Of a stretch of 40,111 bases of DNA, positions 4,426 to 40,111 are shown one piece after another. Each line of letters opens with the position of its first letter. The first letter of the stretch is position 1. Origin of the DNA: a virus; the IMG/VR virus record IMGVR_UViG_3300030116_003778, positions 1 to 40,111 of that record, one strand, 5' to 3'. A program made the position numbers and the translations under genes. The notes under the pieces were generated by a model, which was not told where the DNA came from, did no database searches, and was given only the letters and a program-made list of their open reading frames with translations.

Positions 4426-4635
4426 ATGGTAGCTAAAGTACACAAAGACACTCAAAAAACACAAGAAGTATTTTATAAGGTCAATGATGTAGCAGAAATA
4501 TTAAAGACTACACCAAAGACAGTGCGGACTTATATACACACTCGGAAACTCGATGCCCATAAGCTACCTAATGGTGGTTACCGAATAAGTTATAAAGACC
4601 TGCATGACTTTATTCATGGGTTAAGAGTTGTCTAA
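4426..4635 (+). CDS. Excisionase-like winged-HTH DNA-binding protein
   Basis: A 69-residue protein. Residues 17-66 match the HTH_17/excisionase (MerR-like) pattern: a Y-K-V-N-D-V-A-E-I-L first helix, a T-P-K-T-V-R-T-Y-I recognition helix, then K-L-x-A-H-K-L-P-N-G-G-Y-R-I wing and a D-L-H-D-F-I end helix. An AAAGG site lies six bases before the ATG. Being divergent from the integrase, it is a good candidate for the recombination directionality factor or a regulator of the divergent promoters; these roles cannot be told apart from sequence. Its end overlaps the next gene. Confidence 0.75.
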   Translation: MVAKVHKDTQKTQEVFYKVNDVAEILKTTPKTVRTYIHTRKLDAHKLPNGGYRISYKDLHDFIHGLRVV

Positions 4636-5434
4636 TTATTTAAATAACTATTATCCTAATTGCGTTCGTCAAACTACCCCACTGGGTCGTGCATATAAAG
4701 ACCCGAAAGACGAGTCGAAGCACCCACATCTAGCTTTATCAGTTACTACCATACTGGGCTTATTACTTAACAAGGGAGTGAGTTTTCACACCTGGTTAAA
4801 AACACATGGTAGACATTCTGATACAATTAGGGATTATAAAGCTAATCTTGGTACAGTTGTTCACCTTCTATGCGAAGACCTGTTTAATCTTCAGCGTGTG
4901 ACTCTCTCCCACACAAAGGAGCGTATTAATAATATATTAAGCGATGCAGATATTCGTGAAGGTGGGGGATTTTATTCGACCCTTCTTTCTGTTCAACTGT
5001 ACCTTGAGAGCTTTTGCAAGTGGTATGATGATCATGATGTTAAAACATACGAAACAGAGTTGCAGCTTTATGATAATCGTGTACCATATGCAGGTACTGT
5101 TGATTGGATAGGGGAGATTAGTGGTGTACCAAGTATCCTGGATATAAAAACAGGTATGCCGCATGACGAACATGGTTATCAGCTAGTTGCTTATGGTATG
5201 CTGCACAACTTTATGTTTCCTAAAAATAAAATTAAAGACCTGTACGTGCTTTATCTTAAAAGTGGATACAGAAAAGAGCCTACTTATACAATGAAGAAAA
5301 TTAGTTGGGATTTAAAAGACACCTGGAAATCTCAATTAAGATTGGCAATAGATATGTATGGCAAAGAAGGTAAGTGGGTATTTAAAGAGAAGTTTAAGCC
5401 ACGAGAAGAATTTCAACTAAAGGAGTCAAAGTAA
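4628..5434 (+). CDS. PD-(D/E)XK nuclease of RecB/Cas4-like exonuclease type
   Basis: A 268-residue nuclease. Visible motif order is the RecB-family one: His79 in G-T-V-V-H, Asp159 in AGTVDW, Asp172-x-Lys174 in SILDIKTG, and Q185-x-x-x-Y189 in YQLVAY. It would degrade or resect DNA ends using magnesium, probably in phage recombination with the SSB-like product of the next gene. The start is TTG at 4628, overlapping the TAA of the previous gene; the next in-frame Met is far inside the protein and would remove the conserved SVTTIL and His regions. No cysteine cluster for a Cas4 iron-sulphur centre is visible, so a plain exonuclease is favoured. Confidence 0.82.
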   Translation: MSNYLNNYYPNCVRQTTPLGRAYKDPKDESKHPHLALSVTTILGLLLNKGVSFHTWLKTHGRHSDTIRDYKANLGTVVHLLCEDLFNLQRVTLSHTKERINNILSDADIREGGGFYSTLLSVQLYLESFCKWYDDHDVKTYETELQLYDNRVPYAGTVDWIGEISGVPSILDIKTGMPHDEHGYQLVAYGMLHNFMFPKNKIKDLYVLYLKSGYRKEPTYTMKKISWDLKDTWKSQLRLAIDMYGKEGKWVFKEKFKPREEFQLKESK

Positions 5435-5435
5435 A

Positions 5436-5669
5436 ATGGCATACGAAGTAAAAGAAGGTAATGGAACTTTATTTCCTAATGACAAAAAAGGTAATCAAAG
5501 TTCACCTGACTACACTGGCAATTTTAAAATAGGCGGCAAAATGTGGAATATTGCAGGGTGGGTAGGTAAAACTAAAAGCGGTCAATCTAAGATGGGCTTG
5601 AAGATTAGTGAGCCACAGGCTAAAGGGCAGTCTAATAATCAACAAGCTAACGACGATTTACCATTTTAA
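5436..5669 (+). CDS. SSB-like single-stranded DNA-binding protein (DUF736-like) with acidic tip
   Basis: A 77-residue protein. The core has a beta-rich, OB-like pattern: N-G-T-L-F-P-N at 9-15, P-D-Y-T-G-N-F-K-I at 24-32, then W-N-I-A-G-W-V and K-M-G-L-K-I-S. The last five residues, DDLPF, match the acidic C-terminal tip by which bacterial SSB recruits repair and replication partners. A Gln/Asn-rich linker joins the two parts, as in SSB. It starts two bases after the nuclease gene with an AAAGGAG site, and probably protects single strands during phage replication and recombination. Confidence 0.7.
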   Translation: MAYEVKEGNGTLFPNDKKGNQSSPDYTGNFKIGGKMWNIAGWVGKTKSGQSKMGLKISEPQAKGQSNNQQANDDLPF

Positions 5670-5848
5670 TGACCTATGATAAATTATGCGAGTTGGCTGA
5701 AACGATGAGCGTCGACGAACAAATATCTTTATTTAAAGAATATCGTGACGAAGACTGTACTGCTTGTCGTGAAGGTCACTCGTATGATTTTGAGACTGGC
5801 TATGTTGAGCCATGTTGGTGTTTGAAAGTTGAGTATGAAAAGACATAG
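5669..5848 (+). CDS. Small zinc-binding protein (59 aa)
   Basis: A 59-residue protein beginning in a TAATG overlap with the SSB-like gene. Cys30 and Cys33 (C-T-A-C) and Cys49 and Cys51 (C-W-C), with His37 between, could bind one zinc ion. The N-terminal 25 residues look helical. No family is recognised; in this position, between recombination genes, it may be a DNA- or protein-contact module. Confidence 0.6.
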   Translation: MTYDKLCELAETMSVDEQISLFKEYRDEDCTACREGHSYDFETGYVEPCWCLKVEYEKT

Positions 5849-6056
5849 TTACAGCAATGAAGTGTTTGGAGTGCATTGTGATGATATACATAGAATACTT
5901 CTTGCAGATAATGAGTGGTATAAGATTAATGTTGCTATACAGGTAATGGATGATAAATATTTTTCTGCATGGTGTATAAGAGAACGTGATGGTGCATCCT
6001 TAAAAGTAATAGGTAGTATTGACAAAATATTACTAGCAGAGGCAGAATACTCATAA
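5835..6056 (+). CDS. Hypothetical protein (73 aa)
   Basis: A 73-residue protein starting at ATG 5835 inside the end of the previous gene. A TTG at 5829 could add two residues. Sequence is beta-like in the middle (WYKINVAIQV, SAWCIRERDGASLKVIG) with an acidic end helix; no motif is recognised. It is followed by the non-coding inverted-repeat region at 6057-6159. Confidence 0.5.
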   Translation: MKRHSYSNEVFGVHCDDIHRILLADNEWYKINVAIQVMDDKYFSAWCIRERDGASLKVIGSIDKILLAEAEYS

Positions 6057-6068
6057 TAATGGACAAGG

Positions 6069-6154
6069 ATTGAGGTCAAGACACAACTAAAATGTATTGA
6101 TTAAATGAAGTTTAATTTCACAGTTAGTCATTTGAAATCAGTTTTGACCTCAAT
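6069..6154. promoter_or_regulatory. Long-spaced inverted repeat in an early intergenic gap
   Basis: ATTGAGGTCAA (6069-6079) and TTGACCTCAAT (6144-6154) are perfect inverted copies, extending to 13 of 14 bases with one mismatch. Inside, GATTAAATGA and TCATTTGAAATC form a second, imperfect complementary pair, so an RNA of this region could fold as a long interrupted hairpin. The right arm ends just before the start at 6160, which has no clear ribosome-binding site. It could be a two-site operator or an mRNA structure that controls the next gene. Confidence 0.6.
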
Positions 6155-6159
6155 GAACA

Positions 6160-6618
6160 ATGCCTGATTTTGAGGAACAATTAGCTATCGGCTTAGCGGA
6201 GGAGTCGAGATTTTTGAGACTATTAAATAAACATTATAAACACGCAGTAAAGATAGAAGGCAGCTTTAAAAGATTTGACTTTTATGTACCTGAATTAGAT
6301 ATGAAAGTCGAATTAAAGACTGACAAGAAATCTAATCATACAGGCAATTTTGTTATAGAAACATACCACTACGGAAAACCAAGCGGCATCACTACAACCA
6401 CTGCAGATTTTTGGGTCTTCAATGATGGTCGCTATTATTATTGGATTTCACCTGAGATTATAAAAGACATGATATTGACTTCAGGTATAGATCAAAAGAG
6501 ATTCATAGGCAATGGAGATACCGTTGAAAAAAGAGCCTACCTTATGAGTAAAAGTTGGATAGAAAAGAAATCAGCATTTAAGTGGGAGGTAGAGGTACAT
6601 GAAGTCCAAAGCGTTTGA
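6160..6618 (+). CDS. PD-(D/E)XK-like endonuclease or resolvase-like protein
   Basis: A 152-residue protein with a compact nuclease-like core: Glu14/Glu15 in an N-terminal helix, Asp40 in F-K-R-F-D-F-Y-V, and E51-L-K53 in K-V-E-L-K-T-D, matching the D-(x)n-(E)-x-K signature. Y-Y-W-I-S and W-V-F strands follow. In a replication/recombination operon it could be a Holliday-junction resolvase or a DNA repair or restriction-type nuclease. The start lacks a ribosome-binding site, and the reading frame overlaps the next gene by 20 bases. Confidence 0.6.
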   Translation: MPDFEEQLAIGLAEESRFLRLLNKHYKHAVKIEGSFKRFDFYVPELDMKVELKTDKKSNHTGNFVIETYHYGKPSGITTTTADFWVFNDGRYYYWISPEIIKDMILTSGIDQKRFIGNGDTVEKRAYLMSKSWIEKKSAFKWEVEVHEVQSV

Positions 6619-7294
6619 AGGTGTATGGATACCTAAAGAAGTGCTATGCGATGAGAATCTTACGCTCCACCAAAAAGTTATCTTCTCTATGATACAAGCA
6701 CTAAGCAGCGATCAGCCTTGCTATGCGGGGAATGAATACTTTGCTGACCAATGCGGAACGTCAACAAGAAGTGTAAGTGGTCATATTACAAAATTAAAAG
6801 ACCTGGAATATATTAATGTAGACATTCAGCATGGCTCTGATGGCAAGGTTAAGCAGCGAATTATAACCACTCGCAACTTGAAGGAACTTTCCACTGGTAA
6901 ATACCAAAACTTTCCACTGGATGATAGAGGAGAACCACTGGAAAAAACTTTCTTATACCATAATAAAGAGATAATAAATAAACATACTAAAGGTGAAAAA
7001 GAGATTGTCAAGGAAAGAGAAGTAGCATTAAAAAACTTATATAAGCAGTTGGTAAAGATATATCCTGCTAGAGGAACTCAAACAGTGGGTATGGTGAAAG
7101 GTCAGTTAAGAAAAAGTTTGAAGGAGGGGGCGACAAAGGAAGGGCTGCTGAAAGCTGCGGAGGATTGGAAGCAGCAGAAGTTTCATTATAGTTTATATAA
7201 TTGGTTAAAGCAGAAGGCTTGGCATAAAGACCATCCTTACTATCCTGTAAAAGATAACTCTCCTTTCGCTGTAAGAGATATGGAGTATAGATAA
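6599..7294 (+). CDS. Replication initiator-like protein with N-terminal winged helix
   Basis: A 231-residue protein. Residues 18-85 carry a winged-helix pattern (L-T-L-H-Q-K-V-I-F, G-N-E-Y-F-A-D-Q-C-G-T-S-T-R-S-V-S-G-H, then a basic strand pair), as in HTH_36/lambda O-like initiators. The middle is charged and likely flexible; the C-terminal part (LYNWLKQKAWHKD) resembles the end of phage replication-organiser proteins. A GGGAGG site lies upstream of the ATG at 6599. It probably binds the phage origin and recruits the loader made by the next gene; the origin may lie within this gene, as in lambda, but no iterons were recognised. Confidence 0.65.
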   Translation: MKSKAFEGVWIPKEVLCDENLTLHQKVIFSMIQALSSDQPCYAGNEYFADQCGTSTRSVSGHITKLKDLEYINVDIQHGSDGKVKQRIITTRNLKELSTGKYQNFPLDDRGEPLEKTFLYHNKEIINKHTKGEKEIVKEREVALKNLYKQLVKIYPARGTQTVGMVKGQLRKSLKEGATKEGLLKAAEDWKQQKFHYSLYNWLKQKAWHKDHPYYPVKDNSPFAVRDMEYR

Positions 7295-7899
7295 TGAGCC
7301 TGGAGAATACATTAGATAGGATGTTTGCAGTTCATAATAGAAAACCTATGAACCTGCAGTACGATGAGTACATGAATATATTTAAGATAATTGGAGATGA
7401 GGCTGCAGAAAAAGTATTTGTTCATGTCAGGGATGAAGAAGATAGGTTTCCTACAATCAAGCAGCTATGGGCTATCATTCATTCGCTTGGTGTGTATAAG
7501 AATGAAGTAAGACAAGTTGTTTATGAGGATTGTTATTATTGCTGCAGCACAGGATATATACCATACTTAATCAGTCCAAAAAGAGATAAGAGTGTAGTCA
7601 GTTACAATACCCAGGTGTATGCCTGTAAGTGTAGAGCAGGGATCGACCTACCAAAATATGTACCCAGGTATTTTGAAAAGTTTAACCAGGTTCAGTTTGA
7701 ACCTATAAAAGACTATCCATATCCTATCGTGGTGTCTATAAATCAAAAGAAATATAACGAACAATACAGGATGGAGGCTAAAAATGACAGTATCAAAAGA
7801 CCAGGAGGAGCTTCTACGCAAACAATGGGAGCTAATGAACTTAGAGAAGGAATTAAAAAGGTTACAGAACACTATGCTGTCTCTGAAAATGGAGCATAA
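7294..7899 (+). CDS. Putative helicase loader with zinc-binding cysteines
   Basis: A 201-residue protein starting in a TAATG overlap with the initiator gene. The N-terminal helical part ends with R-F-P-T-I-K-Q-L-W at 51-59, the pattern seen in G39P/DnaI-type loader domains and lambda P-like proteins. Cys80, Cys83 and Cys84 followed by Cys111 and Cys113 (C-x-x-C-C and C-K-C) would form a zinc site. There is no Walker ATPase motif, so it would act as an adaptor that brings the host DnaB helicase to the initiator. The C-terminal 39 residues overlap another frame (7784-7981). The loader role is inferred from gene order and the short motif. Confidence 0.5.
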   Translation: MSLENTLDRMFAVHNRKPMNLQYDEYMNIFKIIGDEAAEKVFVHVRDEEDRFPTIKQLWAIIHSLGVYKNEVRQVVYEDCYYCCSTGYIPYLISPKRDKSVVSYNTQVYACKCRAGIDLPKYVPRYFEKFNQVQFEPIKDYPYPIVVSINQKKYNEQYRMEAKNDSIKRPGGASTQTMGANELREGIKKVTEHYAVSENGA

Positions 7900-7981
7900 T
7901 GAAGATACTAAAATGCAAATACAGAAATGTCAGCAGCAAATAGACAGTACAATAGAAAGTATTCAAGATAACAATGCCTAA
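7784..7981 (+). CDS. Small coiled-coil protein nested across the end of the previous gene
   Basis: A 65-residue, almost entirely helical protein (Leu/Lys/Gln heptads). A strong GGAGG site (7773-7777) sits six bases before its ATG, although the ATG is 116 bases inside the previous gene in another frame; its TAA also overlaps the start of the HNH gene (7974). These signals make it likely to be translated. Function is unknown; it could form a dimer or bind the loader. Confidence 0.6.
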   Translation: MTVSKDQEELLRKQWELMNLEKELKRLQNTMLSLKMEHNEDTKMQIQKCQQQIDSTIESIQDNNA

Positions 7982-8396
7982 AAATTTTTATAGCGGCTTT
8001 CCTCAAAAAATAAAACGCTCCTGGACTGACCAATTGTTTAGCGACTACATAAGGGAACGAGCTAATTGGACTTGCCAAAATCCAAAGTGCAACAAAAAGT
8101 TTGATAAAAAGGATGGTAAGCAAAAAAGAAAGCTGCATTGTTGTCATCTAGGTTATGGTAGGGGTCACGTACCCACGAGATGGAATGAATATAATTGCCT
8201 GGCTTTGTGTAGTGGATGTCATTTATGGGTAGACCAACATCCATTTAGAGCGAATTGGCTAATGAATCAGCACTTTACTTTAGATCAGATTATGTTTGTA
8301 AAAGACCAATACAGAAAAAAGGTTAAGAAAAAAGAATTTGAAATACTCGAGAGAGAGCGTATTAAAAAATTAATAAAGGAGATTGATAATGTATAA
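7974..8396 (+). CDS. HNH/NinG-like endonuclease with zinc site
   Basis: A 140-residue protein. Cys34 and Cys39 (WTCQNPKC), a central L-H-C-C-H-L (54-59) followed by G-H-V-P-T-R-W-N, and C79-x-x-C82-H83 (CSGCH) form the layout of HNH nucleases with a structural zinc, most like NinG/Rap-type recombination nucleases: a C-x4-C pair, a His in the ββα active site, an Asn, and a C-x-x-C pair. The end is a long basic helix. It would cut branched DNA or act in recombination during replication. It overlaps genes on both sides. Confidence 0.75.
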   Translation: MPKNFYSGFPQKIKRSWTDQLFSDYIRERANWTCQNPKCNKKFDKKDGKQKRKLHCCHLGYGRGHVPTRWNEYNCLALCSGCHLWVDQHPFRANWLMNQHFTLDQIMFVKDQYRKKVKKKEFEILERERIKKLIKEIDNV

Positions 8397-8580
8397 ATGG
8401 AATGTATCTGACCGCAAAATAAATGTCATGCTAAAGTCTTTACAAGTCTTTGAGAAGTATGGCTACAAATACCCTAGTGTTATATCGCAGCAGGATATAA
8501 ATGAAGGTGATGAGATAAGGAGGGAGTTAACGCTTATACAATCAGAGAGGAGCAATGAAGAAAAGCAAAAACAAACTTGA
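8389..8580 (+). CDS. Hypothetical protein (63 aa)
   Basis: A 63-residue protein with ATG at 8389, preceded by AAAGGAGA seven bases upstream (an in-frame TTG at 8383 falls too near this site). The N-terminal W-x-V-S-D-R-K-I-N-V-M-L-K-S-L is helix-like and the C-terminus is highly charged. It overlaps the HNH gene by eight bases and the next gene by 26. No family is recognised. Confidence 0.55.
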   Translation: MYKWNVSDRKINVMLKSLQVFEKYGYKYPSVISQQDINEGDEIRRELTLIQSERSNEEKQKQT

Positions 8581-8764
8581 ATCATTAGAGGCTGATTTGA
8601 TTTACATAAGGGGAGTCTATAAAAAGAAAATCATGGACAATGTCCTGGTAAATAAACCAACGGAGAGATTAGTGAAAAGGTATCAAGCAATAGAAATACA
8701 ACTATGGAATCTTCGAGAAGACATGAAAAATGGAGCAAAGCAGATAGCATCCAATGGGTCTTAG
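8555..8764 (+). CDS. Hypothetical helical protein (69 aa)
   Basis: A 69-residue charged, mostly helical protein with an AGAGGAG ribosome-binding site eight bases before its ATG, inside the end of the previous gene. It overlaps the following gene by 61 bases. No conserved motif is recognised. Confidence 0.55.
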   Translation: MKKSKNKLESLEADLIYIRGVYKKKIMDNVLVNKPTERLVKRYQAIEIQLWNLREDMKNGAKQIASNGS

Positions 8765-8985
8765 ACCAACTAGATAAAAGTGTTGTCCAGGAAGTAAAAC
8801 CTGACGGTAAACTAAGTATTAATTATGACAAGAGCTTAGCTGATAAGCATCTTGTTTGGTGTGGAATTTGCGGTGATGTATATGACAGTGTTTATGGAGA
8901 TATATATCCCGATTTTCCAAAGATTGGAAAGGAAAGAATAGATCATGACAAAAATTGTCAAAGAACCTTCACTCGACGTAACTGA
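8704..8985 (+). CDS. Small C2HC zinc-finger-like protein (93 aa)
   Basis: A 93-residue protein with Cys53, Cys56 (W-C-G-I-C-G), His81 and Cys85 spaced as a C-x2-C...H-x3-C zinc finger. The first 25 residues are basic and helical. It begins 61 bases inside the previous gene and the next gene begins 41 bases before its end. It may be a DNA-binding or adaptor protein of the early operon. Confidence 0.6.
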   Translation: MESSRRHEKWSKADSIQWVLDQLDKSVVQEVKPDGKLSINYDKSLADKHLVWCGICGDVYDSVYGDIYPDFPKIGKERIDHDKNCQRTFTRRN

Positions 8986-9286
8986 TTTTATGATGAAGGA
9001 ATATCCTACGTTGATGAAGAGCATAAAGAAGCATTTTAATGAATGTTTTACATTATTTGCTGAGAAACAAATGGATTATGGCTTAGGTAACATAGCTATG
9101 AATGGAAACAAAAGACTCGCTCTTTTAGGTATCTGCATACGTTTAAATGATAAAGTGCAAAGGGCATTGAATATATTGGAGAAAGACCAAAGCCCTAACA
9201 ATGAAAGTTTAAAGGATACTGCTTTGGATATAACTAATTATGGTGCGATATTTAATACGGTGTTGAAAGATGAGTGGAAAAAATGA
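8945..9286 (+). CDS. DUF1599 / nucleotide-modification-associated (Nmad1-like) protein
   Basis: A 113-residue protein. The family pattern is visible in order: F-A-E-K-Q-M-D-Y-G-L-G-N, then L-L-G-I-C-I-R-L-N-D-K-V-Q-R, then E-S-L-K-D-T-A-L-D-I-T-N-Y. This is the signature of DUF1599, a small helical family found in phages and linked by comparative genomics to nucleotide modification. The E-K-x-x-D-Y-G and D-x-x-D-x-x-N-Y residues probably line a metal/nucleotide site as in related all-alpha pyrophosphatases. No partner modification enzyme is seen here. A GGAAAGGAAAG site precedes the ATG. Confidence 0.8.
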   Translation: MTKIVKEPSLDVTDFMMKEYPTLMKSIKKHFNECFTLFAEKQMDYGLGNIAMNGNKRLALLGICIRLNDKVQRALNILEKDQSPNNESLKDTALDITNYGAIFNTVLKDEWKK

Positions 9287-9575
9287 TGGTCTACGACGAA
9301 AACGAACCAAGTATAGAAGTAACGAAGGCTATACAAGAAGAGCAGTCCAGGACAATAATTTCTTTATTGACTACTCTAACGATAAAACTTGGTGGGCTTG
9401 TATTGAACGAATTGCGATTGCTCAGTCTAAGATTGGGGTCAAGGACTCGATGCGTTGTGTTGAAAGTATCGTCATGGATCGTGAGCAGCGTAGGGAGGGT
9501 TATATCTTTTGTTCGCCGCAACAATTAAATGCAGCATTAAGATTGATGCGAGAAATTTACCTAATGAAAAAGTGA
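9270..9575 (+). CDS. Hypothetical protein (101 aa), last gene of the early operon
   Basis: A 101-residue protein starting 17 bases before the end of the DUF1599 gene. The N-terminus is very basic (LRRKRTKYR); the rest has T-W-W-A-C-I-E-R-I and R-R-E-G-Y-I-F-C-S-P-Q-Q-L-N-A-A-L-R patterns of a small alpha/beta fold. An out-of-phase frame over the same bases (9274-9528) begins with GTG and has biased composition, so it was left out. It is followed by two hairpins. Confidence 0.6.
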   Translation: MSGKNDGLRRKRTKYRSNEGYTRRAVQDNNFFIDYSNDKTWWACIERIAIAQSKIGVKDSMRCVESIVMDREQRREGYIFCSPQQLNAALRLMREIYLMKK

Positions 9576-9612: not shown

Positions 9613-9659
9613 GAAAGGGGTACAGGCATGCATGGAAACGCCCTCCTAGTACCCCTTTC
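9613..9659. terminator. Bidirectional hairpin between convergent early operons
   Basis: GAAAGGGGTAC (9613-9623) and GTACCCCTTTC (9649-9659) form a perfect 11-bp stem with a 25-base loop. It lies between the ends of the plus operon (to 9575) and the minus operon (to 9665) and is the best candidate to stop both. Confidence 0.6.
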
Positions 9660-9664
9660 ACTTG

Positions 9665-9850
9665 TTAGTCGACCATATCCTTGATTCGTTGGAAGTTCTC
9701 GTCATTAACGGTCGATTTACTGCTCCAATCCTTAAGTATATGACCAATCAATTGTTCTTGGGATAGTCCAAGTTGTCTTGCTCTTAAATATATTACATCC
9801 ATCGTGGATTTATGAGCCTTTATCCAATAGCTCTTACGTTCTAATTTCAT
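9665..9850 (-). CDS. Hypothetical protein (61 aa), last gene of reverse operon
   Basis: A 61-residue protein. A longer frame from 9889 exists, but the ATG at 9850 is preferred: it follows the stop of the upstream gene (9853-9855) by two bases and has an AAAGGAAG site upstream, while the 9889 ATG has none. Residues 15-45 look like two helices around a Q-L-G-L-S-Q-E-Q-L turn, which could be a helix-turn-helix, but the match is too weak to call it a repressor. Confidence 0.55.
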   Translation of the reverse strand: MKLERKSYWIKAHKSTMDVIYLRARQLGLSQEQLIGHILKDWSSKSTVNDENFQRIKDMVD

Positions 9851-9852
9851 TT

Positions 9853-10017
9853 CTACAAACTTCCTTTCTTTCCTTTTAATATTTTCCATTCTGCAGGATT
9901 ACCTTCTATCATTATTTGATGCAGTTTTACCCATGCTTTTAATTCGCTCTTAGCTAGTATAACAATTAAAGTAGAGCCATGCGTAAAAGCATATTCCTTT
10001 AGTCTAAGTATGTTCAT
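9853..10017 (-). CDS. Hypothetical protein (54 aa)
   Basis: A 54-residue basic protein (MNILRLKEYAFTHG...) whose ATG overlaps the TGA of the upstream gene (10014-10016) and whose TAG lies two bases before the next start. GGAG precedes the start. It has alternating helix- and strand-like hydrophobic positions (STLIVILAKSE). No family is recognised; its evidence is the tight coupling on both sides. Confidence 0.55.
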   Translation of the reverse strand: MNILRLKEYAFTHGSTLIVILAKSELKAWVKLHQIMIEGNPAEWKILKGKKGSL

Positions 10018-10232
10018 TGCTCCTCCTCATTTTGTGCGTACTCTTCGGGATATGCTGCTTCGTGCAATGTATCGTAATTGTCCATGCAGAATTGCCATTG
10101 GGATCTACTCAAATTTGTTAACCTTCTTGCTCGTGGGTCGAACATATTGTACATGCCGCTTCTTCTTACGGACTCAAATTGCTTAAATTGCTTCTTCCTG
10201 GTTTCCCAGTTCAATGTTTTTTCTTTTGACAT
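10014..10232 (-). CDS. Hypothetical protein (72 aa)
   Basis: A 72-residue protein with a basic N-terminal half (KTLNWETRKKQFKQFESVRRSG) and an acidic end (EEYAQNEEEQ). W-Q-F-C-M-D-N-Y suggests a helical core. Its start overlaps the stop of the upstream gene (TAATG) and its stop overlaps the next start. No family is recognised. Confidence 0.55.
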   Translation of the reverse strand: MSKEKTLNWETRKKQFKQFESVRRSGMYNMFDPRARRLTNLSRSQWQFCMDNYDTLHEAAYPEEYAQNEEEQ

Positions 10233-10444
10233 TATATTAGCTCCTGTTTATTAAACCATTCATCTGACTCTTCATCATTTTCAAAGTATAAGAACCCATC
10301 TAATGAATTCTCAAAGTTGGATACCCATCCTAATTCAAAGGCGTTGTTCACTATCCATTCGTCAGAGCAATGCTGCTCTTCTTCGCAGGTATCCTCCTCC
10401 CTTAGTTTTTTAACTAGCTCCTCCTCTGTTGTAAAGAATATCAT
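10232..10444 (-). CDS. Acidic hypothetical protein (70 aa)
   Basis: A 70-residue strongly acidic protein with W-I-V-N-N-A-F-E-L-G-W-V and FENSLDGFLYF patterns. A GGAAGGAG site lies upstream. Strong acidity and small size are shared with DNA-mimic inhibitors, but that is only a thought; there is no motif that proves it. It is coupled by overlap to both neighbours. Confidence 0.5.
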   Translation of the reverse strand: MIFFTTEEELVKKLREEDTCEEEQHCSDEWIVNNAFELGWVSNFENSLDGFLYFENDEESDEWFNKQELI

Positions 10445-10620
10445 TGTTCAACTCCTTCCCTGGTATCCTCAATTATTTCGTAGTGATCTAAAGTTAAATT
10501 GTAATGCTCGTTCCATCGTGAGTTGCAGTCATCACACTCCATTTTATAGATAATGCAGCCATCATCAAACATTGTGCGACCTATGTCAGTGTTAGTGCTT
10601 TCACAAATAGGGCAATCCAT
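10441..10620 (-). CDS. Zinc-ribbon protein (59 aa)
   Basis: A 59-residue protein with Cys3-x-x-Cys6 and Cys29-x-x-Cys32, the two knuckles of a zinc ribbon, followed by an acidic tail. It starts in a TAATG overlap with the gene at 10620-11159 and stops in an ATGA overlap with the next. Zinc ribbons of this type bind nucleic acid or RNA polymerase partners; which applies is unknown. Confidence 0.65.
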   Translation of the reverse strand: MDCPICESTNTDIGRTMFDDGCIIYKMECDDCNSRWNEHYNLTLDHYEIIEDTREGVEQ

Positions 10621-11159
10621 TACAATACCCTCCTTAACATTTTGATTAATAATTCCTTTTTATCTTGCGGAAGTTCAGTGCAGGGTATCCAAGCATCTTT
10701 TACATCAATATCATCCAAGACTATACCTTGTTCATCTCTATATGCACTAAAATTGCTCCAATCATTGTAGATGTATGGGTAATTATGTTTTTCAAATTCA
10801 AACTCGCCTGTATCTATCCAATACAGGACAAAGTCAGTCTCGTAAAGCTCGGGGTCATAATCTTTATCGGTGAATAGCTTGCCTACGCAGGGAGTGCAAT
10901 AGGTATGGTCATCCGCTCCTGCAGGCATCTCATTTTCATCGCAATCAACACAAAGTTCAATATCACAATTCCAACAACTATGCACGTCATCGCCTATTGC
11001 ATTGCACTTTTTGCATTTATAGTATCCATCATCAATTGCATCCTGTTCACATTTAAATGTTGGATGCTCCTCCAGGGTAACTTTTATCGGTTTTTCGTCT
11101 TGATCCCATATTAAAAATCCGCCTCCTGGTATATATTGATTTAATAAAGCTCTACTCAT
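10620..11159 (-). CDS. Multi-cysteine zinc-binding protein (179 aa)
   Basis: The longest gene of the reverse operon. Cys49, 52, 62, 65, 70, 73, 88 and 91 (C-K-K-C, C-W-N-C, C-V-D-C, C-T-P-C) make a cross-braced RING- or treble-clef-like cluster able to hold two zinc ions. Before it is a short beta region (FLIWDQDEKPIKVTL); after it an acidic, aromatic-rich part. A role in protein-protein contact, perhaps with a host enzyme, is plausible but not shown. Confidence 0.6.
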   Translation of the reverse strand: MSRALLNQYIPGGGFLIWDQDEKPIKVTLEEHPTFKCEQDAIDDGYYKCKKCNAIGDDVHSCWNCDIELCVDCDENEMPAGADDHTYCTPCVGKLFTDKDYDPELYETDFVLYWIDTGEFEFEKHNYPYIYNDWSNFSAYRDEQGIVLDDIDVKDAWIPCTELPQDKKELLIKMLRRVL

Positions 11160-11512
11160 TTTATCACCTCACTTTCTTCTATCTCTGCGGCACACTCAGC
11201 ACGTCTAACCCGCTCTACTTCTATCTCATAATATTTGCCTGTTAGCTTGTTATGCCATATTTCTGTTCCATTACCTCCATCTATATCATCAAAGTCTATA
11301 TATTCCCAATGTCCTGTATCTCCGCAATCCTGGAAGCCTTGCTCAAAAAGATTTACAGTCTCTTTCGGCTGCTGCAATTCATAATATGGGTCATCCTCAA
11401 TCATACGTTGTTTCCAGGCACGCAATTCAATAAGCTCCTCCTCCTGCTCCTTTATTTTGGCTTCCATGTCTTTAATTAATTTGTCGTGTAATTCTTTAAA
11501 AAATGTGTTCAT
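11156..11512 (-). CDS. Coiled-coil hypothetical protein (118 aa)
   Basis: A 118-residue protein. Residues 5-40 form a clear coiled coil (KLIKDMEAKIKEQEEELIELR); the rest is acidic with G-H-W-E-Y-I-D-F-D-D-I-D-G and T-E-I-W-H-N-K-L-T-G-K-Y-Y-E-I patterns of a small beta fold. AAGGAG precedes its start, four bases after the stop of the upstream gene. No family is recognised. Confidence 0.55.
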   Translation of the reverse strand: MNTFFKELHDKLIKDMEAKIKEQEEELIELRAWKQRMIEDDPYYELQQPKETVNLFEQGFQDCGDTGHWEYIDFDDIDGGNGTEIWHNKLTGKYYEIEVERVRRAECAAEIEESEVIK

Positions 11513-11516
11513 TGTT

Positions 11517-11657
11517 TTATCTCCTTGTCCATTTTGTAAAGCTATTCATTGTGTAGTGGCATTTAATACATATTAAATAGCCGCTACCTAGTCTCACCCA
11601 ATTGGTTTGATTTATTGCTATGTTACATCTAGCGCATTTTTTATTAATTAATTTCAT
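11517..11657 (-). CDS. Small zinc-ribbon protein (46 aa)
   Basis: A 46-residue basic protein with Cys8-x-x-Cys11 and Cys30-x-x-Cys33 and a basic C-terminus (TKWTRR). Its ATG follows the previous stop by one base, with GGAG upstream. It fills what would otherwise be a gap in the reverse operon. Likely binds zinc; target unknown. Confidence 0.6.
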   Translation of the reverse strand: MKLINKKCARCNIAINQTNWVRLGSGYLICIKCHYTMNSFTKWTRR

Positions 11658-11658
11658 T

Positions 11659-11907
11659 TTAGCATCTCCAATCTTTTATATAATTTTTAATTGTTTCTAT
11701 CGTCAGTTTTTGGTTTTTGTATCCATTTGGCGTATACGTCCAATGATTGCCAACCTCGTCAATATTTATATAACAGCGTGTAAATTTGTCCTTGTATAAA
11801 TGTATTGTTGAGCCATTGGCGGAAGTTTCTGTTCCCATGTACATAAATCTAGGGATCAAATGAAAATGGCGTATCCTTTTAAGAAATTGTTCTAATGGTT
11901 GCCACAT
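11659..11907 (-). CDS. Hypothetical protein (82 aa)
   Basis: An 82-residue basic, aromatic-rich protein, with M-Y-M-G-T-E-T and C-Y-I-N-I-D-E-V-G-N-H-W-T-Y suggesting a beta-sheet, and an end helix. Its ATG shares an A with the TAA of the gene before. No family is recognised. Confidence 0.55.
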   Translation of the reverse strand: MWQPLEQFLKRIRHFHLIPRFMYMGTETSANGSTIHLYKDKFTRCYINIDEVGNHWTYTPNGYKNQKLTIETIKNYIKDWRC

Positions 11908-12116
11908 TAATTGACCTCCTTAAATATTTTGTATTGGTCGGGGTCTTCTTGCTCAGTAATTACAAAGACCTTTGGCGGTTCTTGATTTAGCTGCTGCTTT
12001 TTGTAATTGTCATCCTGGAGTTGTTTTTTCAGTTCGGCAGCTTGTATTATTGGAAGGTTACCTTTGACCACATCATATGACATGGTCAAAGGATTTAGAA
12101 CTAATACGTTAAACAT
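11907..12116 (-). CDS. Hypothetical protein (69 aa)
   Basis: A 69-residue protein. An ATG at 12143 would add nine residues, but the ATG at 12116 is chosen because it has an AAAGGAGG site and overlaps the stop of the first gene (TAATG). The sequence opens with F-N-V-L-V-L-N-P-L and M-S-Y-D-V-V-K-G, then a charged helix, then K-V-F-V-I-T. No family is recognised. Confidence 0.55.
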   Translation of the reverse strand: MFNVLVLNPLTMSYDVVKGNLPIIQAAELKKQLQDDNYKKQQLNQEPPKVFVITEQEDPDQYKIFKEVN

Positions 12117-12592
12117 TATACAACCTCCTTTTCTACTCCGCAAAAATCTAAGACCAGGCTGTAATCGTGTTCACTTAAAGTCATCCTACAGGTAGGAATC
12201 ATTGAGCTTGGGACTTTGCGGTCAATTACCATATAGGCGTAGGCTATTTCATCGCTCATGTCTTGACCACAGCCAGACAAGGCAATAACATGACTTTCAA
12301 TGCTTTCTATATATAAAATACATATATTGGGAGCGTGTTCTGTAATAAGCTCAATTTGTCCTTCGGTGGGTTCATATTGTAGAACGTGAGCATAATTATA
12401 AATAGGCTCAAAACCATCTTGCCATTCATAAAAGCAAGATGAATCTTCGAACTCTTGGAGGTTGTCGTATCCGTATTCTTCAGCGATCCCTAGCGTTGGC
12501 TTGAGGTTGTCAACTGTTAAATTGTCATAATTGAATTCTTCTGATTCATATCTTTTTGTTATGTAATCAGATATATTGATATTGTAACTCAT
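12116..12592 (-). CDS. First gene of the reverse-strand operon (158 aa, acidic)
   Basis: A 158-residue acidic, Tyr-rich protein with no recognised family. Sequence such as I-C-I-L-Y-I-E-S-I-E-S-H-V-I-A-L-S-G-C-G-Q-D-M-S-D-E-I-A-Y-A-Y-M-V-I-D looks like an alpha/beta core. It is read from the promoter at 12643-12670, and the ten following genes are all coupled to it. Being first in an operon controlled by a palindromic operator makes it a candidate for host takeover or regulation, but this is inference. Confidence 0.6.
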   Translation of the reverse strand: MSYNINISDYITKRYESEEFNYDNLTVDNLKPTLGIAEEYGYDNLQEFEDSSCFYEWQDGFEPIYNYAHVLQYEPTEGQIELITEHAPNICILYIESIESHVIALSGCGQDMSDEIAYAYMVIDRKVPSSMIPTCRMTLSEHDYSLVLDFCGVEKEVV

Positions 12593-12642: not shown

Positions 12643-12670
12643 ATTATATCAATTGATACAATTGAGTCAA
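12643..12670 (-). promoter_or_regulatory. Promoter of the reverse operon with palindromic operator
   Basis: On the minus strand, TTGACT (complement of 12665-12670), a 16-base spacer, and TATAAT (complement of 12643-12648) form a near-consensus sigma70 promoter. Between them is a perfect 7-bp inverted repeat, TCAATTG-ATA-CAATTGA (12649-12665), that almost fills the spacer. A protein bound there would block RNA polymerase, so it is a likely operator. Confidence 0.75.
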
Positions 12671-13002
12671 TACTTATTTTAAAATAAATTAAAATAATTA
12701 CTGTTTGTCGTCGATAAAATAGCATTTAATATTGTGTTAGTTTTGAAGTATTAAAAGAGTTATTATTTACCGAAATGAGGCACATTTTTTTGATTTCAAA
12801 ATTAAAGCAGCTTAATAAATCGGTTAGCCTGGGAAGGGTTTTTAACCCTCGGTGGCTCGTCGAGAAAGTTGTTTTTGGTGGTAAAATTGGCAGTAAATTG
12901 CTTTTTTTTAATATAATTGAGCAGTTGACCCCCGTTGCCGCCGAATCGCACCTCAGCCCTGTGTGTCCGTTACATAATTTATCGTGAGACAGAATATTTA
13001 AT
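12671..13002. other. Non-coding region upstream of the packaging genes
   Basis: About 330 bases without a convincing gene. It starts AT-rich, with weak promoter-like TTGTCG and TAATAT sequences near 12710-12735 on the plus strand. It then has two GC-richer patches: 12811-12870, with hairpin AGGGTT-TTT-AACCCT (12835-12849), and about 12920-12972. Just before the terminase genes, it is a candidate for the late promoter and for a cos/pac site or a small structured RNA. A 70-codon frame at 12775-12987 has poor composition and no ribosome-binding site and is not accepted. Confidence 0.4.
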
Positions 13003-13323
13003 ATGAAAAAGACTAAGACTAAAAAAGAAATGTTAGCAAAATCCTGGGGAGAATGGATACGTAACCACCCCCAGACCCCTGTATTGCTGCAAAAGATTTT
13101 TGACACCGCTATGACAGATGGAGATGAGAACCAGTTCAAAGCCATTAATATGTTAATTGATCGTATTGCCCCACACTTAAAAGCTGTGGAAATGGATGTT
13201 AAGGGAGAAATCTCGCAAGGCGTTATAGTTTTACCTGAAAAAAAGAAACGTACCCCTGTGCAGCCTAGTAAACTAGACAAGGCTACTGAGGAGGTAATAA
13301 AAGATATAAGTGCGGAGGCATAA
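13003..13323 (+). CDS. Putative small terminase subunit
   Basis: A 106-residue protein: basic N-terminus (MKKTKTKKE), a helical middle with D-G-D-E-N-Q-F-K-A-I-N-M-L-I-D-R-I-A-P-H-L-K, and a V-I-V-L-P-E-K-K-K strand end. This D-G-D-x-x-x-x-K-x-x-x-D-R-x-x-P pattern occurs in short TerS proteins of podovirus-like phages, where the protein recognises the packaging site. Its place three genes before TerL supports the call. Confidence 0.6.
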   Translation: MKKTKTKKEMLAKSWGEWIRNHPQTPVLLQKIFDTAMTDGDENQFKAINMLIDRIAPHLKAVEMDVKGEISQGVIVLPEKKKRTPVQPSKLDKATEEVIKDISAEA

Positions 13324-13479
13324 ATGAGTCTATATGAAAACATCAATAAACGTAAAAAGGCAGGTACTAGCCGCTCAAAAGCCAATACTACCATTGACCC
13401 CGATACCTATGCTAAGATGAAAGCTAAAAAAGGTGGGTTTGCCCCTAAGAAAAAGAAGAAGAAAGCTAAGATGGTATAA
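13324..13479 (+). CDS. Small conserved basic phage protein (51 aa)
   Basis: A 51-residue Lys-rich protein (MSLYENINKRKKAGTSRSKA at the start, KKGGF then a Lys run). The N-terminal pattern is a recurring one in phage genomes, usually beside the terminase. It starts one base after the TerS stop (TAAATG) and ends in a TAATG overlap with the next gene. Function unknown; binding to DNA or the procapsid is possible given the charge. Confidence 0.7.
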   Translation: MSLYENINKRKKAGTSRSKANTTIDPDTYAKMKAKKGGFAPKKKKKKAKMV

Positions 13480-13751
13480 TGGCATCACCTGCATGGACAA
13501 GAAAAGAAGGTCAAAGTAAATCAGGAGGCTTAAACGCCCGAGGTAGAGCATCTTACAAACGAGCTACAGGTGGTACGCTTAAACCTCCTGTGACCGAGTC
13601 TAAGCCTAAAGGTGAACGAAAGACACGCCGCAAGAAGTTTTGTGCAAGAATGTGTGGTATGAAAAAAAGGAGAACAGGTAGAGCTACTGCAAAAGACCCT
13701 AATTCACGCATTAACAAGGCATTGCGTAAATGGAAGTGTCGCTGCGTTTAA
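13479..13751 (+). CDS. DUF6321-like basic protein (90 aa)
   Basis: A 90-residue basic protein. MASPAWTRKEGQSKSGGLNA followed by a G-R-A-S-Y-K and L-K-P-P-V segment matches the small DUF6321 family seen in many phages near the terminase. The C-terminal half is Arg/Lys-rich with Cys55, Cys59 and a final C-R-C, which could bind metal or nucleic acid. It is followed directly by the large terminase gene (stop TAA, ATG). Confidence 0.7.
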   Translation: MASPAWTRKEGQSKSGGLNARGRASYKRATGGTLKPPVTESKPKGERKTRRKKFCARMCGMKKRRTGRATAKDPNSRINKALRKWKCRCV

Positions 13752-15131
13752 ATGTCACAAAAGATTTTATGGAAACCACACGAAGGTCAGCAGACTAAAG
13801 CATTACAACAGACTGCATTTGAGTGTTGCTATGGTGGCAGCAGGGGAGGTGGAAAATCGGCTGCAGGTCTAGCTTGGATGATAGAACCTGACTACTTGAA
13901 CAACCCCCTATATCGTGGTCTAGTAATTCGTAGAAATTACGATGATTTACGTGACTGGATTGACAGGGCAACTCTTTTTTATCGTTCACTTGGTGTAAAG
14001 GTCAGAGGGAATCCTGCTGAGTTTACATTTCCTAGTGGTGCAAAGATCAGGACTGGTCACTTAGCTGATAGTGACGCAACATATAAATACTTAGGTCACG
14101 AATATCATAAGATATTGATAGAAGAGCTGACCATTATCCCTGAAGAAGAAAACTATTTACGATTAATATCTACCTGTCGTTCTACAGTAAAAGGATTAGA
14201 GCCGCAAGTATTTGCAACTACTAATCCAGGAGGTGTAGGGCATATGTGGGTAAAGCAGCGTTTTGTAGATGTTGCAAGAGAAAAAGAGTTTGTAGACCCT
14301 GTTACTGGCAGAACTAGAATATTTATACCTGCAACTGTCTACGATAACCCCACCCTTATGAAAAACGACCCTATGTATGTAAAAACCCTCGAAGGTTTAC
14401 CTGAAGATTTAAGAAGAGCTTGGTTAGATGGCGATTGGGATGTATTCTCAGGACAATACTTTAATAAGTGGAGATATGAGAAGCACGTTATTAAACCCTT
14501 TAAAATACCTGATGAATGGCATCGTTATCGCTGTATTGATTATGGCTATTCAGCTCCTTTTGTGTGCCTATGGATTTGTGTTGATTATGACGGTAATGCT
14601 TACGTTTACAGAGAACATTATGAAAAAGGTCAGCCGCTATCACACCACATAGCTAAGATAAACGAATTAAGCGGCGATGAGAAATATATGAACACTCTTG
14701 CCGACCCCTCTATGTGGATCAAGAATCCTCAAAATACTAACAATTGGTCTAGACCTATGCCCTCACATATGTCAATAGCAGATATAATGCTGCAAGAAGG
14801 CATACCAGTAAATAGGGCTAATAACGACAGATTGAGCGGTGCTAACCTGGTAAGGGAGTATTTAGAGTGGAATGATTCGGATAAACCTGAACCTAGACTT
14901 AAATTTTTTAGCAATTGTGAAGACACCATAAGGTCAATACCTATGCTTGTTCATTCACAGAAAAGACCTGAAGATGTAGATACAACCCAGGATGACCACT
15001 GTTTTGACGCACTAAAATATGGTCTGCAATACATTGGCTCTCCATCCAAAGATAAACAAAAACCTGCTTTGCAGCGTGAACTAGAAAGGTTGTTAGCATT
15101 AGACAGTCAGTACATGGGGATAAGAAATTGA
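13752..15131 (+). CDS. terL: Terminase large subunit (ATPase and nuclease)
   Basis: A 459-residue packaging motor. The ATPase has Walker A G-G-S-R-G-G-G-K-S (28-36) and Walker B I-L-I-E-E (Glu124/Glu125), with the coupling region at T-T-N-P-G-G. The RNase H-like nuclease has Asp263 in R-C-I-D-Y-G, Asp318 in L-A-D-P-S, and a C-terminal acidic motif D-D-H-C-F-D (414-419). Length fits short Terminase_6-type TerL proteins. It would cut concatemers and pump DNA through the portal made two genes later. A TTG-started small gene overlaps its end. Confidence 0.95.
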   Translation: MSQKILWKPHEGQQTKALQQTAFECCYGGSRGGGKSAAGLAWMIEPDYLNNPLYRGLVIRRNYDDLRDWIDRATLFYRSLGVKVRGNPAEFTFPSGAKIRTGHLADSDATYKYLGHEYHKILIEELTIIPEEENYLRLISTCRSTVKGLEPQVFATTNPGGVGHMWVKQRFVDVAREKEFVDPVTGRTRIFIPATVYDNPTLMKNDPMYVKTLEGLPEDLRRAWLDGDWDVFSGQYFNKWRYEKHVIKPFKIPDEWHRYRCIDYGYSAPFVCLWICVDYDGNAYVYREHYEKGQPLSHHIAKINELSGDEKYMNTLADPSMWIKNPQNTNNWSRPMPSHMSIADIMLQEGIPVNRANNDRLSGANLVREYLEWNDSDKPEPRLKFFSNCEDTIRSIPMLVHSQKRPEDVDTTQDDHCFDALKYGLQYIGSPSKDKQKPALQRELERLLALDSQYMGIRN

Positions 15132-39391: not shown

Positions 39392-40111
39392 TGGCGTTAA
39401 CACAGATTAAAACAACAGGCATAGCAGATAATGCAGTAACCGATGCTAAGGTTGTAGATGCCATAACCTCATCTAACCACTTACCATTAGCAGGTGGCAC
39501 AATGACTGGTGCATTAAACATGAACAGTCAAAACATAACTAATGCAGGTACTATACAAGGCACACTTAGCACAGCATCACAAACTAATATAACGTCAGTT
39601 GGTACTCTTACAGGATTAACTGTTGGAGGTACAATTACTTCAAGTGCAGATATGGGTGGTGGTAGAGATACTGGAATGAATCTTAGAAGCACAAATTCAA
39701 GTGGTTATGGTTTTGCAGTTAATTTTCAAGCTAATGATGGTACAGATGATGACAGAATTGTAGCAAGACTTTATTCAGAACCAAATAATGCCACTACTTC
39801 AGATTTTAGAATAGCTACAAGATCAGGGGGAACTTTAGCAAATAGATTAACAATTACAGGTAATGACACTACATTTTCAGGTATGTTAGGTATAGGTGGT
39901 ACTGCTATAGATAAACTTGATATTCATGGCGGTAATGCTAGAATTAGAGTAGGTGGTTTAGGTCTTATACAATTAAAAAATGATGGTAGTAACCATAGTT
40001 TAATTATTGCAAATAATAATGGCGGTAGTGAAACAATAAGATTCCATACTAGCGGTAGTTCTTATTTAACAGGTGGTAATTTTGGATTGGGACATGGTAG
40101 CCCTCCATGTA
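39391..40111 (+). CDS. Tail fibre protein, N-terminal part (3' end outside window)
   Basis: A fibre gene cut by the right edge; 240 residues are visible. It starts in a TAATG overlap with the S74 fibre. It begins A-L-T-Q-I-K-T-T-G-I-A-D-N-A-V-T-D-A-K-V-V, the common fibre attachment module, then L-A-G-G-T-M-T-G-A-L-N-M-N, a shaft containing I-T-S-V-G-T-L-T-G-L-T-V-G-G, and from residue 160 sequence almost the same as residues 107-187 of the partial gene at the left edge. It could be the missing 5' end of that gene if the molecule is circular, giving a protein of 478 residues. Confidence 0.8.
   Translation, partial: MALTQIKTTGIADNAVTDAKVVDAITSSNHLPLAGGTMTGALNMNSQNITNAGTIQGTLSTASQTNITSVGTLTGLTVGGTITSSADMGGGRDTGMNLRSTNSSGYGFAVNFQANDGTDDDRIVARLYSEPNNATTSDFRIATRSGGTLANRLTITGNDTTFSGMLGIGGTAIDKLDIHGGNARIRVGGLGLIQLKNDGSNHSLIIANNNGGSETIRFHTSGSSYLTGGNFGLGHGSPPC
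39869..40111 (+). repeat. Near-duplicate of 321-563 at the right edge
   Basis: Gapless match to 321-563 with about 12 mismatches by eye, mostly synonymous, in the same reading frame. The two copies are 39548 bases apart. See the entry for 321-563. Confidence 0.9.

What the first reader, a model, noticed from the sequence alone, without database searches (positions are those of the whole stretch)
9665..12592. Eleven-gene coupled reverse operon of small zinc and acidic proteins with no known families
All eleven genes overlap or nearly touch, three have paired-cysteine zinc sites (10441, 10620, 11517) and several are very acidic. An operon with its own regulated promoter opposing the rest of the genome is typical of host-takeover, lysogenic or defence-related functions. 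None is recognised, so it is the best place in this genome for undescribed activities such as anti-defence inhibitors or superinfection exclusion.
Basis: partly seen in the sequence, partly recalled or inferred. Interest (0 to 1): 0.65.

Follow-up and report, generated by a model that had tools for sequence, protein, structure and literature searches.

The report
Variable accessory operon of uncultured phage
Eleven small genes on the reverse strand of an uncultured phage form one compact operon whose contents are swapped from relative to relative while everything around it stays the same, and because relatives carry a known anti-restriction gene in the same slot, it is probably a kit for overcoming bacterial defences, switched off by its own last gene.

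Summary
Eleven minus-strand ORFs (9665-12592) tile with gaps of -4 to +4 bases and Shine-Dalgarno sites; 500 dinucleotide shuffles never gave more than two such coupled ORFs. The operon has a near-consensus promoter (12670-12643) containing a perfect inverted repeat, and ends at a hairpin shared with the convergent operon. Related phages show what it is: a fixed-position, hypervariable accessory operon. The 15 neighbouring genes tested are conserved in nearly all relatives that cover them, but of the eleven only g1, the promoter-distal gene, is universal. g1 is modelled as a ribbon-helix-helix (CopG/Arc-type) DNA-binding protein. Eight relatives with a readable promoter-proximal end carry a HExxH zincin there, either ArdC-type antirestriction (4) or SprT-like (4); the window has neither. 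Distal DNA-binding gene plus inverted repeat inside the core promoter is the architecture of acr-aca operons, with RHH replacing HTH. Best reading: an early counter-defence/host-takeover cassette with autorepression, not a lysogeny module. No window gene has a proven anti-defence function; five have no detected homologue. Side finding: relatives carry a ~160-200-nt leader RNA with seven compensated base pairs and no Rfam match, absent from the window.

The parts
12643..12670 (-). promoter-like site TTGACT-16-TATAAT (extended -10), with an upstream block CGACGACAAACAG + A/T tract that is conserved in relatives
   Evidence: 11/12 sigma-70 match; upstream block conserved in L012, L006, L007, L034, L066, L011
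12649..12665 (.). candidate operator: perfect 17-bp inverted repeat TCAATTG-TAT-CAATTGA inside the promoter core
   Evidence: 96 of 5000 mononucleotide shuffles of the 28-bp core reach an arm of 7, so suggestive only
12116..12592 (-). g11, 158 aa, acidic; family with motif ALxGxGxxxxxxIAxAY shared with giant Caulobacter/Brevundimonas phages, a 65-kb and a 103-kb viral contig and the M. extorquens AM1 megaplasmid; function unknown
   Evidence: tblastn E 1e-5 (phages) and 1e-6 (plasmid); L025, L052; model pLDDT 64, no convincing PDB fold match
11907..12116 (-). g10, 69 aa, no homologue found in the relatives
   Evidence: SD AGGAGG, 1-base overlap with g11
11659..11907 (-). g9, 82 aa, basic, no homologue found in the relatives
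   Evidence: SD AGGAGG, 1-base overlap
11517..11657 (-). g8, 46 aa, basic, two CxxC motifs (probable zinc ribbon)
11156..11512 (-). g7, 118 aa, acidic; N-part shared with L015, C-part shared with L002/L003: two exchangeable modules
   Evidence: 65% over 52 aa; 40% over 47 aa
10620..11159 (-). g6, 179 aa, acidic, eight-cysteine array with cross-brace-like spacing; this part is 76% identical to part of a different protein in contigs L002/L003, which have another terminase
10441..10620 (-). g5, 59 aa, zinc ribbon, weakly Lar/NrdR-like; homologue in L007 operon
   Evidence: 53% over 56 aa; TIGR03655 Lar 18.7 bits vs cut-off 39.6
10232..10444 (-). g4, 70 aa, very acidic (net -17), no homologue found
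10014..10232 (-). g3, 72 aa; homologue in L006 operon; weak match to phrog_8677 (unknown function)
   Evidence: 53% over 45 aa; E 5e-4
9853..10017 (-). g2, 54 aa, basic, no homologue found
9665..9850 (-). g1, 61 aa (74 aa from ATG 9889), ribbon-helix-helix DNA-binding protein by model; only gene of the operon present in all relatives; proposed autorepressor
   Evidence: 10-member alignment A5; AF2 helices 27-40 and 44-58 of the 74-aa form; Foldseek top hit CopG-DNA prob 0.99, TMt 0.81
9613..9659 (.). hairpin between the convergent operons, probable bidirectional terminator (11-bp perfect stem GAAAGGGGTAC/GTACCCCTTTC)
   Evidence: RNA fold about -26 to -28 kcal/mol on either strand; sequence

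Best explanation
This is a fixed-position, hypervariable accessory (moron-like) operon of a phage with a tyrosine integrase and a P22/SU10-like portal. A strong sigma-70-type promoter fires on entry; eleven small proteins are made by coupled translation; most act on host defences or host machinery (counter-defence/host takeover); the last product, the RHH protein g1, then binds the inverted repeat in the promoter core and shuts the operon down, the logic of acr-aca operons. SHOWN: the operon, promoter-like site and hairpin as sequence features, synteny, content turnover, g1 universality, ArdC/SprT in the relatives' slot. SUPPORTED BY MODEL: g1 is RHH. INFERRED: early timing, autorepression, and the anti-defence role of the other window genes.
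For: 11-gene chain vs at most 2 in 500 shuffles. Flank genes 4628-9575 and 13003-15131 are conserved in the relatives that cover them (most at 45-82%), whereas only g1 is universal and g3, g5, g7 occur in one relative each. ArdC in L007, L011, L033/L034, L066: ArdcN PF08401 and MPTase-PolyVal PF18818 well above cut-off for L007, PF18818 for L011, the others by homology to these; SprT-like in L006, L012, L015, L036; never both. g1 RHH model with CopG, Arc, PutA and MazE-type hits; three members match PHROG 'Arc-like repressor' weakly. Promoter core holds an inverted repeat; relatives with g1 strand KTIRA(V/C)xxK mostly share CACATATGTG/CACAATTGTG-type sites while the window, with KSYWIKAHK, has TCAATTG..CAATTGA. 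Aca precedent: inverted repeat within the core promoter, co-transcribed repressor (PMC9410906); ArdC antirestriction precedent (PMC5512222).
Against: No window gene passes a curated anti-defence family cut-off; the window lacks the ArdC/SprT gene found in eight relatives, so the association is positional. The g1 Foldseek E-values are above 0.001 (short protein; probability and TM are high). The promoter inverted repeat is about a 2% event by shuffling. Timing and host are unknown.
Confidence: 0.6

Rival explanations
1. General early host-takeover operon: the small acidic and zinc proteins redirect host transcription, replication or metabolism rather than block immunity.
For: Small acidic ORFans are typical of early phage genes (own knowledge); SprT-like proteases of relatives could process DNA-protein crosslinks rather than counter defence.
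Against: ArdC in half of the relatives; extreme turnover of content fits an arms race with variable host defences better than conserved takeover targets.
Confidence: 0.22
2. Prophage-expressed module (lysogenic conversion, superinfection exclusion or phage-borne defence), expressed in the lysogen.
For: The phage carries a tyrosine integrase; reverse orientation; own promoter.
Against: The integrase is 5 kb away; no PADLOC match; no membrane or surface proteins evident; in relative L037 a repressor-like HTH ORF lies beside the integrase, not here.
Confidence: 0.1
3. RHH g1 is an antitoxin and the operon contains a toxin-antitoxin pair.
For: RHH proteins are common antitoxins; several Foldseek hits are antitoxins.
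Against: g1 is constant while its immediate upstream neighbour differs between most relatives, so there is no conserved toxin partner.
Confidence: 0.06

Closest known systems
acr-aca anti-CRISPR operons (Aca1-10; PMC9410906)
   Same: Short cistrons of unrelated small proteins with a small DNA-binding gene at the distal end; inverted repeat inside the core promoter.
   Different: The regulator here is ribbon-helix-helix, not HTH; no known Acr found; eleven genes.
ArdC-type antirestriction proteins (ArdcN + MPTase-PolyVal; PMC5512222)
   Same: Present in the same operon slot of relatives L007, L011, L033/L034, L066.
   Different: Absent from the window; the window's proximal slot holds g11 instead.
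Anti-defence islands of plasmid leading regions (PMC11541004)
   Same: Clusters of small, mostly uncharacterised genes around known antirestriction genes.
   Different: A phage operon behind an ordinary double-stranded promoter; no evidence for an ssDNA promoter.
CopG/Arc ribbon-helix-helix repressors
   Same: Strand-helix-helix layout and size; predicted structure matches CopG-DNA.
   Different: No Pfam-level sequence match; operator not demonstrated.
Start-Associated Sequences of cluster K mycobacteriophages (PMC3203893)
   Same: Relatives repeat near-identical RBS sequences (GAAAGYGAGGTGGAGTGATG; AACACAAACACAGGAG) before unrelated genes.
   Different: Different sequence; overlaps the upstream gene's last codons (C-terminal ESEV); the window keeps only one copy.

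Membership tests
Ribbon-helix-helix (CopG/Arc/MetJ) regulators | Short N-terminal extended segment followed by two helices | tested here: met
   AF2 helices 27-40 and 44-58 after an extended segment, block mean pLDDT 92-96 for residues 31-50; top PDB hits CopG, PutA, Arc. The strand forms only in the dimer, which was not modelled.
Ribbon-helix-helix (CopG/Arc/MetJ) regulators | Statistically significant sequence homology to a known member | tested here: inconclusive
   Pfam none; PDB sequence search gave no RHH; phrog_582 Arc-like, best E 0.039, in 3 of 10 members
Ribbon-helix-helix (CopG/Arc/MetJ) regulators | Dimer binding an operator in its own promoter | not testable with these tools
   Only a sequence-level candidate operator at 12649-12665
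Anti-CRISPR-associated (Aca) regulators | HTH domain of families Aca1-10 | tested here: not met
   g1 model is RHH
Anti-CRISPR-associated (Aca) regulators | Distal regulator gene and inverted repeat within core promoter | tested here: met
   precedent
Anti-CRISPR-associated (Aca) regulators | Adjacent known acr gene | not tested
   No dedicated Acr profile library was available; the family scans made named no Acr
ArdC antirestriction | ArdcN and/or MPTase-PolyVal domain | tested here: not met
   No hit in window proteins or window DNA; met in relatives L007 and L011
Lar restriction alleviation (g5) | Score above TIGR03655/PF14354 cut-off | tested here: not met
   18.7 vs 39.6 bits; 13.2 vs 28.6 bits
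Anti-phage defence systems | PADLOC model match | tested here: not met
   No match for ten of the eleven proteins (g2 not scanned) at E 0.5
Toxin-antitoxin operon | Conserved toxin partner next to the RHH gene | tested here: not met
   The upstream neighbour of g1 differs between most relatives

The most novel reading that the evidence does not exclude
Each phage of this uncultured group keeps one exchangeable counter-defence operon at a fixed site, always capped by an RHH 'Aca-like' autorepressor whose DNA-reading strand co-varies with the promoter operator, and in most relatives preceded by an undescribed structured leader RNA; the window's g2-g11 are then largely undescribed inhibitors of bacterial defence, and g1 is a bait for finding more in other phages.
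Probability: 0.3. Interest if true: 0.68.

Novelty: new variant of a known kind. Interest (0 to 1): 0.47.

Why it matters
It turns a list of eleven unnamed ORFs into a testable locus: a fixed-site cassette where known antirestriction genes of relatives are swapped for unknown ones, with a universal regulator gene (g1) usable as a search handle, as aca genes were for anti-CRISPRs. The relatives' leader RNA is a candidate new RNA family.

Tried and rejected
Close relatives of the window by DNA in known phages: none. Close relatives of g11 in IMG/VR by single sequence: none; found only via known phages and an alignment. g6 in phages and plasmids: none. g7 in phages: none; g5 in phages: only hits with E about 0.3. 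g11 fold search: no convincing match, low-confidence model. g1 by sequence against PDB: no RHH hit. Rfam on window and relatives: nothing. Pattern scan for the leader RNA's terminal hairpin: only this phage group; the other exact matches look like chance. Host: a terminase alignment in genome contigs hit one contig in a Flavobacteriales MAG, which may be misbinned because these phages use strong Shine-Dalgarno sites, which Bacteroidota rarely do (own knowledge); integrase search in phages empty; no tRNA. Host left open; alphaproteobacterial phages recur among g11 and ArdC hits. The ORF 12726-13394 on the minus strand is rejected as a gene: it is antisense to the conserved 13003-13323 gene and lacks a good SD. 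GC content does not set the operon apart (36.9% vs 36.9% for the record).

Full report
WHAT IS THERE. The window is an IMG/VR virus record of 40,111 bases from a phage with a tyrosine integrase (PF00589), a P22/SU10-like portal and a terminase at most about 36% identical to those listed best among GenBank phages. On the minus strand between 12592 and 9665 lie eleven ORFs whose ends overlap or nearly touch, each downstream gene preceded by an SD-like site. A chain of this kind does not arise by chance: in 500 dinucleotide shuffles the longest chain was two ORFs, 381 bases, against eleven ORFs and 2937 bases. A promoter-like site TTGACT-16-TATAAT with extended -10 sits at 12670-12643, and an 11-bp perfect hairpin at 9613-9659 separates the operon from the convergent one.

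WHAT RELATIVES SHOW. The terminase, the left flank gene and g1 brought in contigs of the same phage group. In all with a readable locus a minus-strand run of small genes sits in the same place. A window-against-relatives comparison is the central result: nearly all eleven plus-strand genes to the left (4628-9575) and the four to the right (13003-15131) are found in the relatives that cover them (26-96% identity, most 45-82%; two short right-hand genes were not found in E and G). Of the eleven operon genes only g1 is found in all; g3, g5 and g7 each occur in one relative (L006, L007, L015) and the rest in none of the group. g6's cysteine array (76% identical) and the C-part of g7 recur in two contigs with a different terminase (L002/L003), and g11 recurs in giant Caulobacter and Brevundimonas phages, in the terminal repeat of CcrPW, in two other viral contigs and on the Methylorubrum extorquens AM1 megaplasmid. 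So the operon is a hypervariable island fed by exchange with unrelated elements.

FUNCTIONAL CLUES. In relatives the promoter-proximal part carries a HExxH zincin: ArdC in L007, L011, L033/L034 and L066 (for L007 ArdcN 88 bits against a cut-off of 22.6 and MPTase-PolyVal 117.6 against 27.5), or an SprT-like protease in L006, L012, L015 and L036 (sub-threshold PF10263, 21.4 against 25.6 bits for L006). Eight relatives have one or the other, none both; the window has neither. ArdC is an antirestriction protein that protects entering DNA (PMC5512222). This gives the locus a counter-defence signature by position, not proof for each window gene.

THE REGULATOR. The ten-member g1 alignment folds as two helices after an extended segment; the best solved-structure matches are nearly all ribbon-helix-helix proteins, led by the CopG-DNA complex (probability 0.99, TM 0.81 on the target, E 0.31), and the viral library gives CopG-like proteins too. 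Sequence searches alone did not reach this, though PHROG 'Arc-like repressor' matched three members weakly. The promoter core contains TCAATTG-TAT-CAATTGA, whose arm length about 2% of shuffled cores would reach. Upstream of the -35 the promoters of the window and relatives are clearly alike (CGACGACAAACAG plus A/T tract), yet the core differs: relatives with g1 strand KTIRA(V/C)xxK mostly have CACATATGTG or CACAATTGTG, the window with KSYWIKAHK has the CAATTG pair. That is what co-evolution of an autorepressor and its operator would look like, but with few independent lineages it is suggestive only. A distal DNA-binding gene plus an inverted repeat in the core promoter is the acr-aca arrangement (PMC9410906).

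MECHANISM PROPOSED. Early burst from the strong promoter, coupled translation of an interchangeable set of small effectors, then repression by accumulating g1. Shown: anatomy, synteny, turnover, relatives' ArdC. Inferred: timing, repression, and effector functions.

SIDE FINDING. Between promoter and first gene, L006/L074, L007/L065, L012/L056, L034/L058 and L066 carry a conserved leader of about 160-200 nt; RNAalifold gives 36 pairs, seven with compensatory changes among five sequences. A sixth relative, L057, varies the last hairpin in a compensated way by eye (CAGT..ACTG to CAAT..ATTG). Single-sequence folding is not exceptional (z -1.3) and no Rfam family matches even at E 5. L033 and L034, otherwise close, differ by a swapped central module. 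The window's leader is only about 45 nt, so it lacks this element.

VERDICT. Observation confirmed; interpretation partly supported. It is a new variant of a known kind, the fixed-site phage anti-defence/takeover operon with a distal putative autorepressor, moderately interesting chiefly because g1 offers a search handle and because relatives carry an undescribed leader RNA.

Noticed in passing
L065:9101-9272 (+), L066:2976-3148 (-), L058:3342-3513 (+), L056:2405-2596 (+), L074:8755-8946 (+), L057:7871-8242 (-): Conserved structured leader RNA upstream of the relatives' operon, 7 of 36 predicted pairs compensated across five sequences, no Rfam match; absent from the window.
   Followed up: partly
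L068:5944-6259 vs L058:3342-3513 (leaders of the L033 and L034 phages): Nearly identical phages differ by replacement of a ~34-nt leader module by a ~180-nt one, the long version also in L036/L057: the RNA itself is modular.
   Followed up: partly
L007, L015, L043, L006 operons; window about 11160-11176: Near-identical RBS sequence GAAAGYGAGGTG(GAGTGATG) is reused at several junctions, so unrelated proteins end in ESEV(E/K); a possible recombination boundary. The window keeps one copy, at the g7-g6 junction.
   Followed up: partly
L007:1806-2264 (-): 152-aa operon protein with a YRG...SWT...ESE pattern reminiscent of ADP-ribosyltransferases; no Pfam or NCBIfam hit.
   Followed up: no
window 8945-9286 (+): Highly conserved left-flank gene with sub-threshold similarity to DUF1599, nucleotide modification associated domain 1.
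   Followed up: no
window about 335-570 and 39880-40110: Start and end of the record encode nearly identical tail-fibre-like segments (MLGIGGTA[VI]DKLDIHGGNARIRV...), a repeat or an assembly junction.
   Followed up: no
L024: 81% identical terminase on a contig binned in a Flavobacteriales MAG (SZUA-1004); SD usage makes that host doubtful.
   Followed up: no
window 12061-12092: 16-bp near-perfect inverted repeat (CCTTTGACC...GGTCAAAGG) inside g10.
   Followed up: no
window 10620-11159: Eight-cysteine array with cross-brace-like (FYVE/RING-like) spacing in a phage protein; shared as a module with L002/L003.
   Followed up: partly
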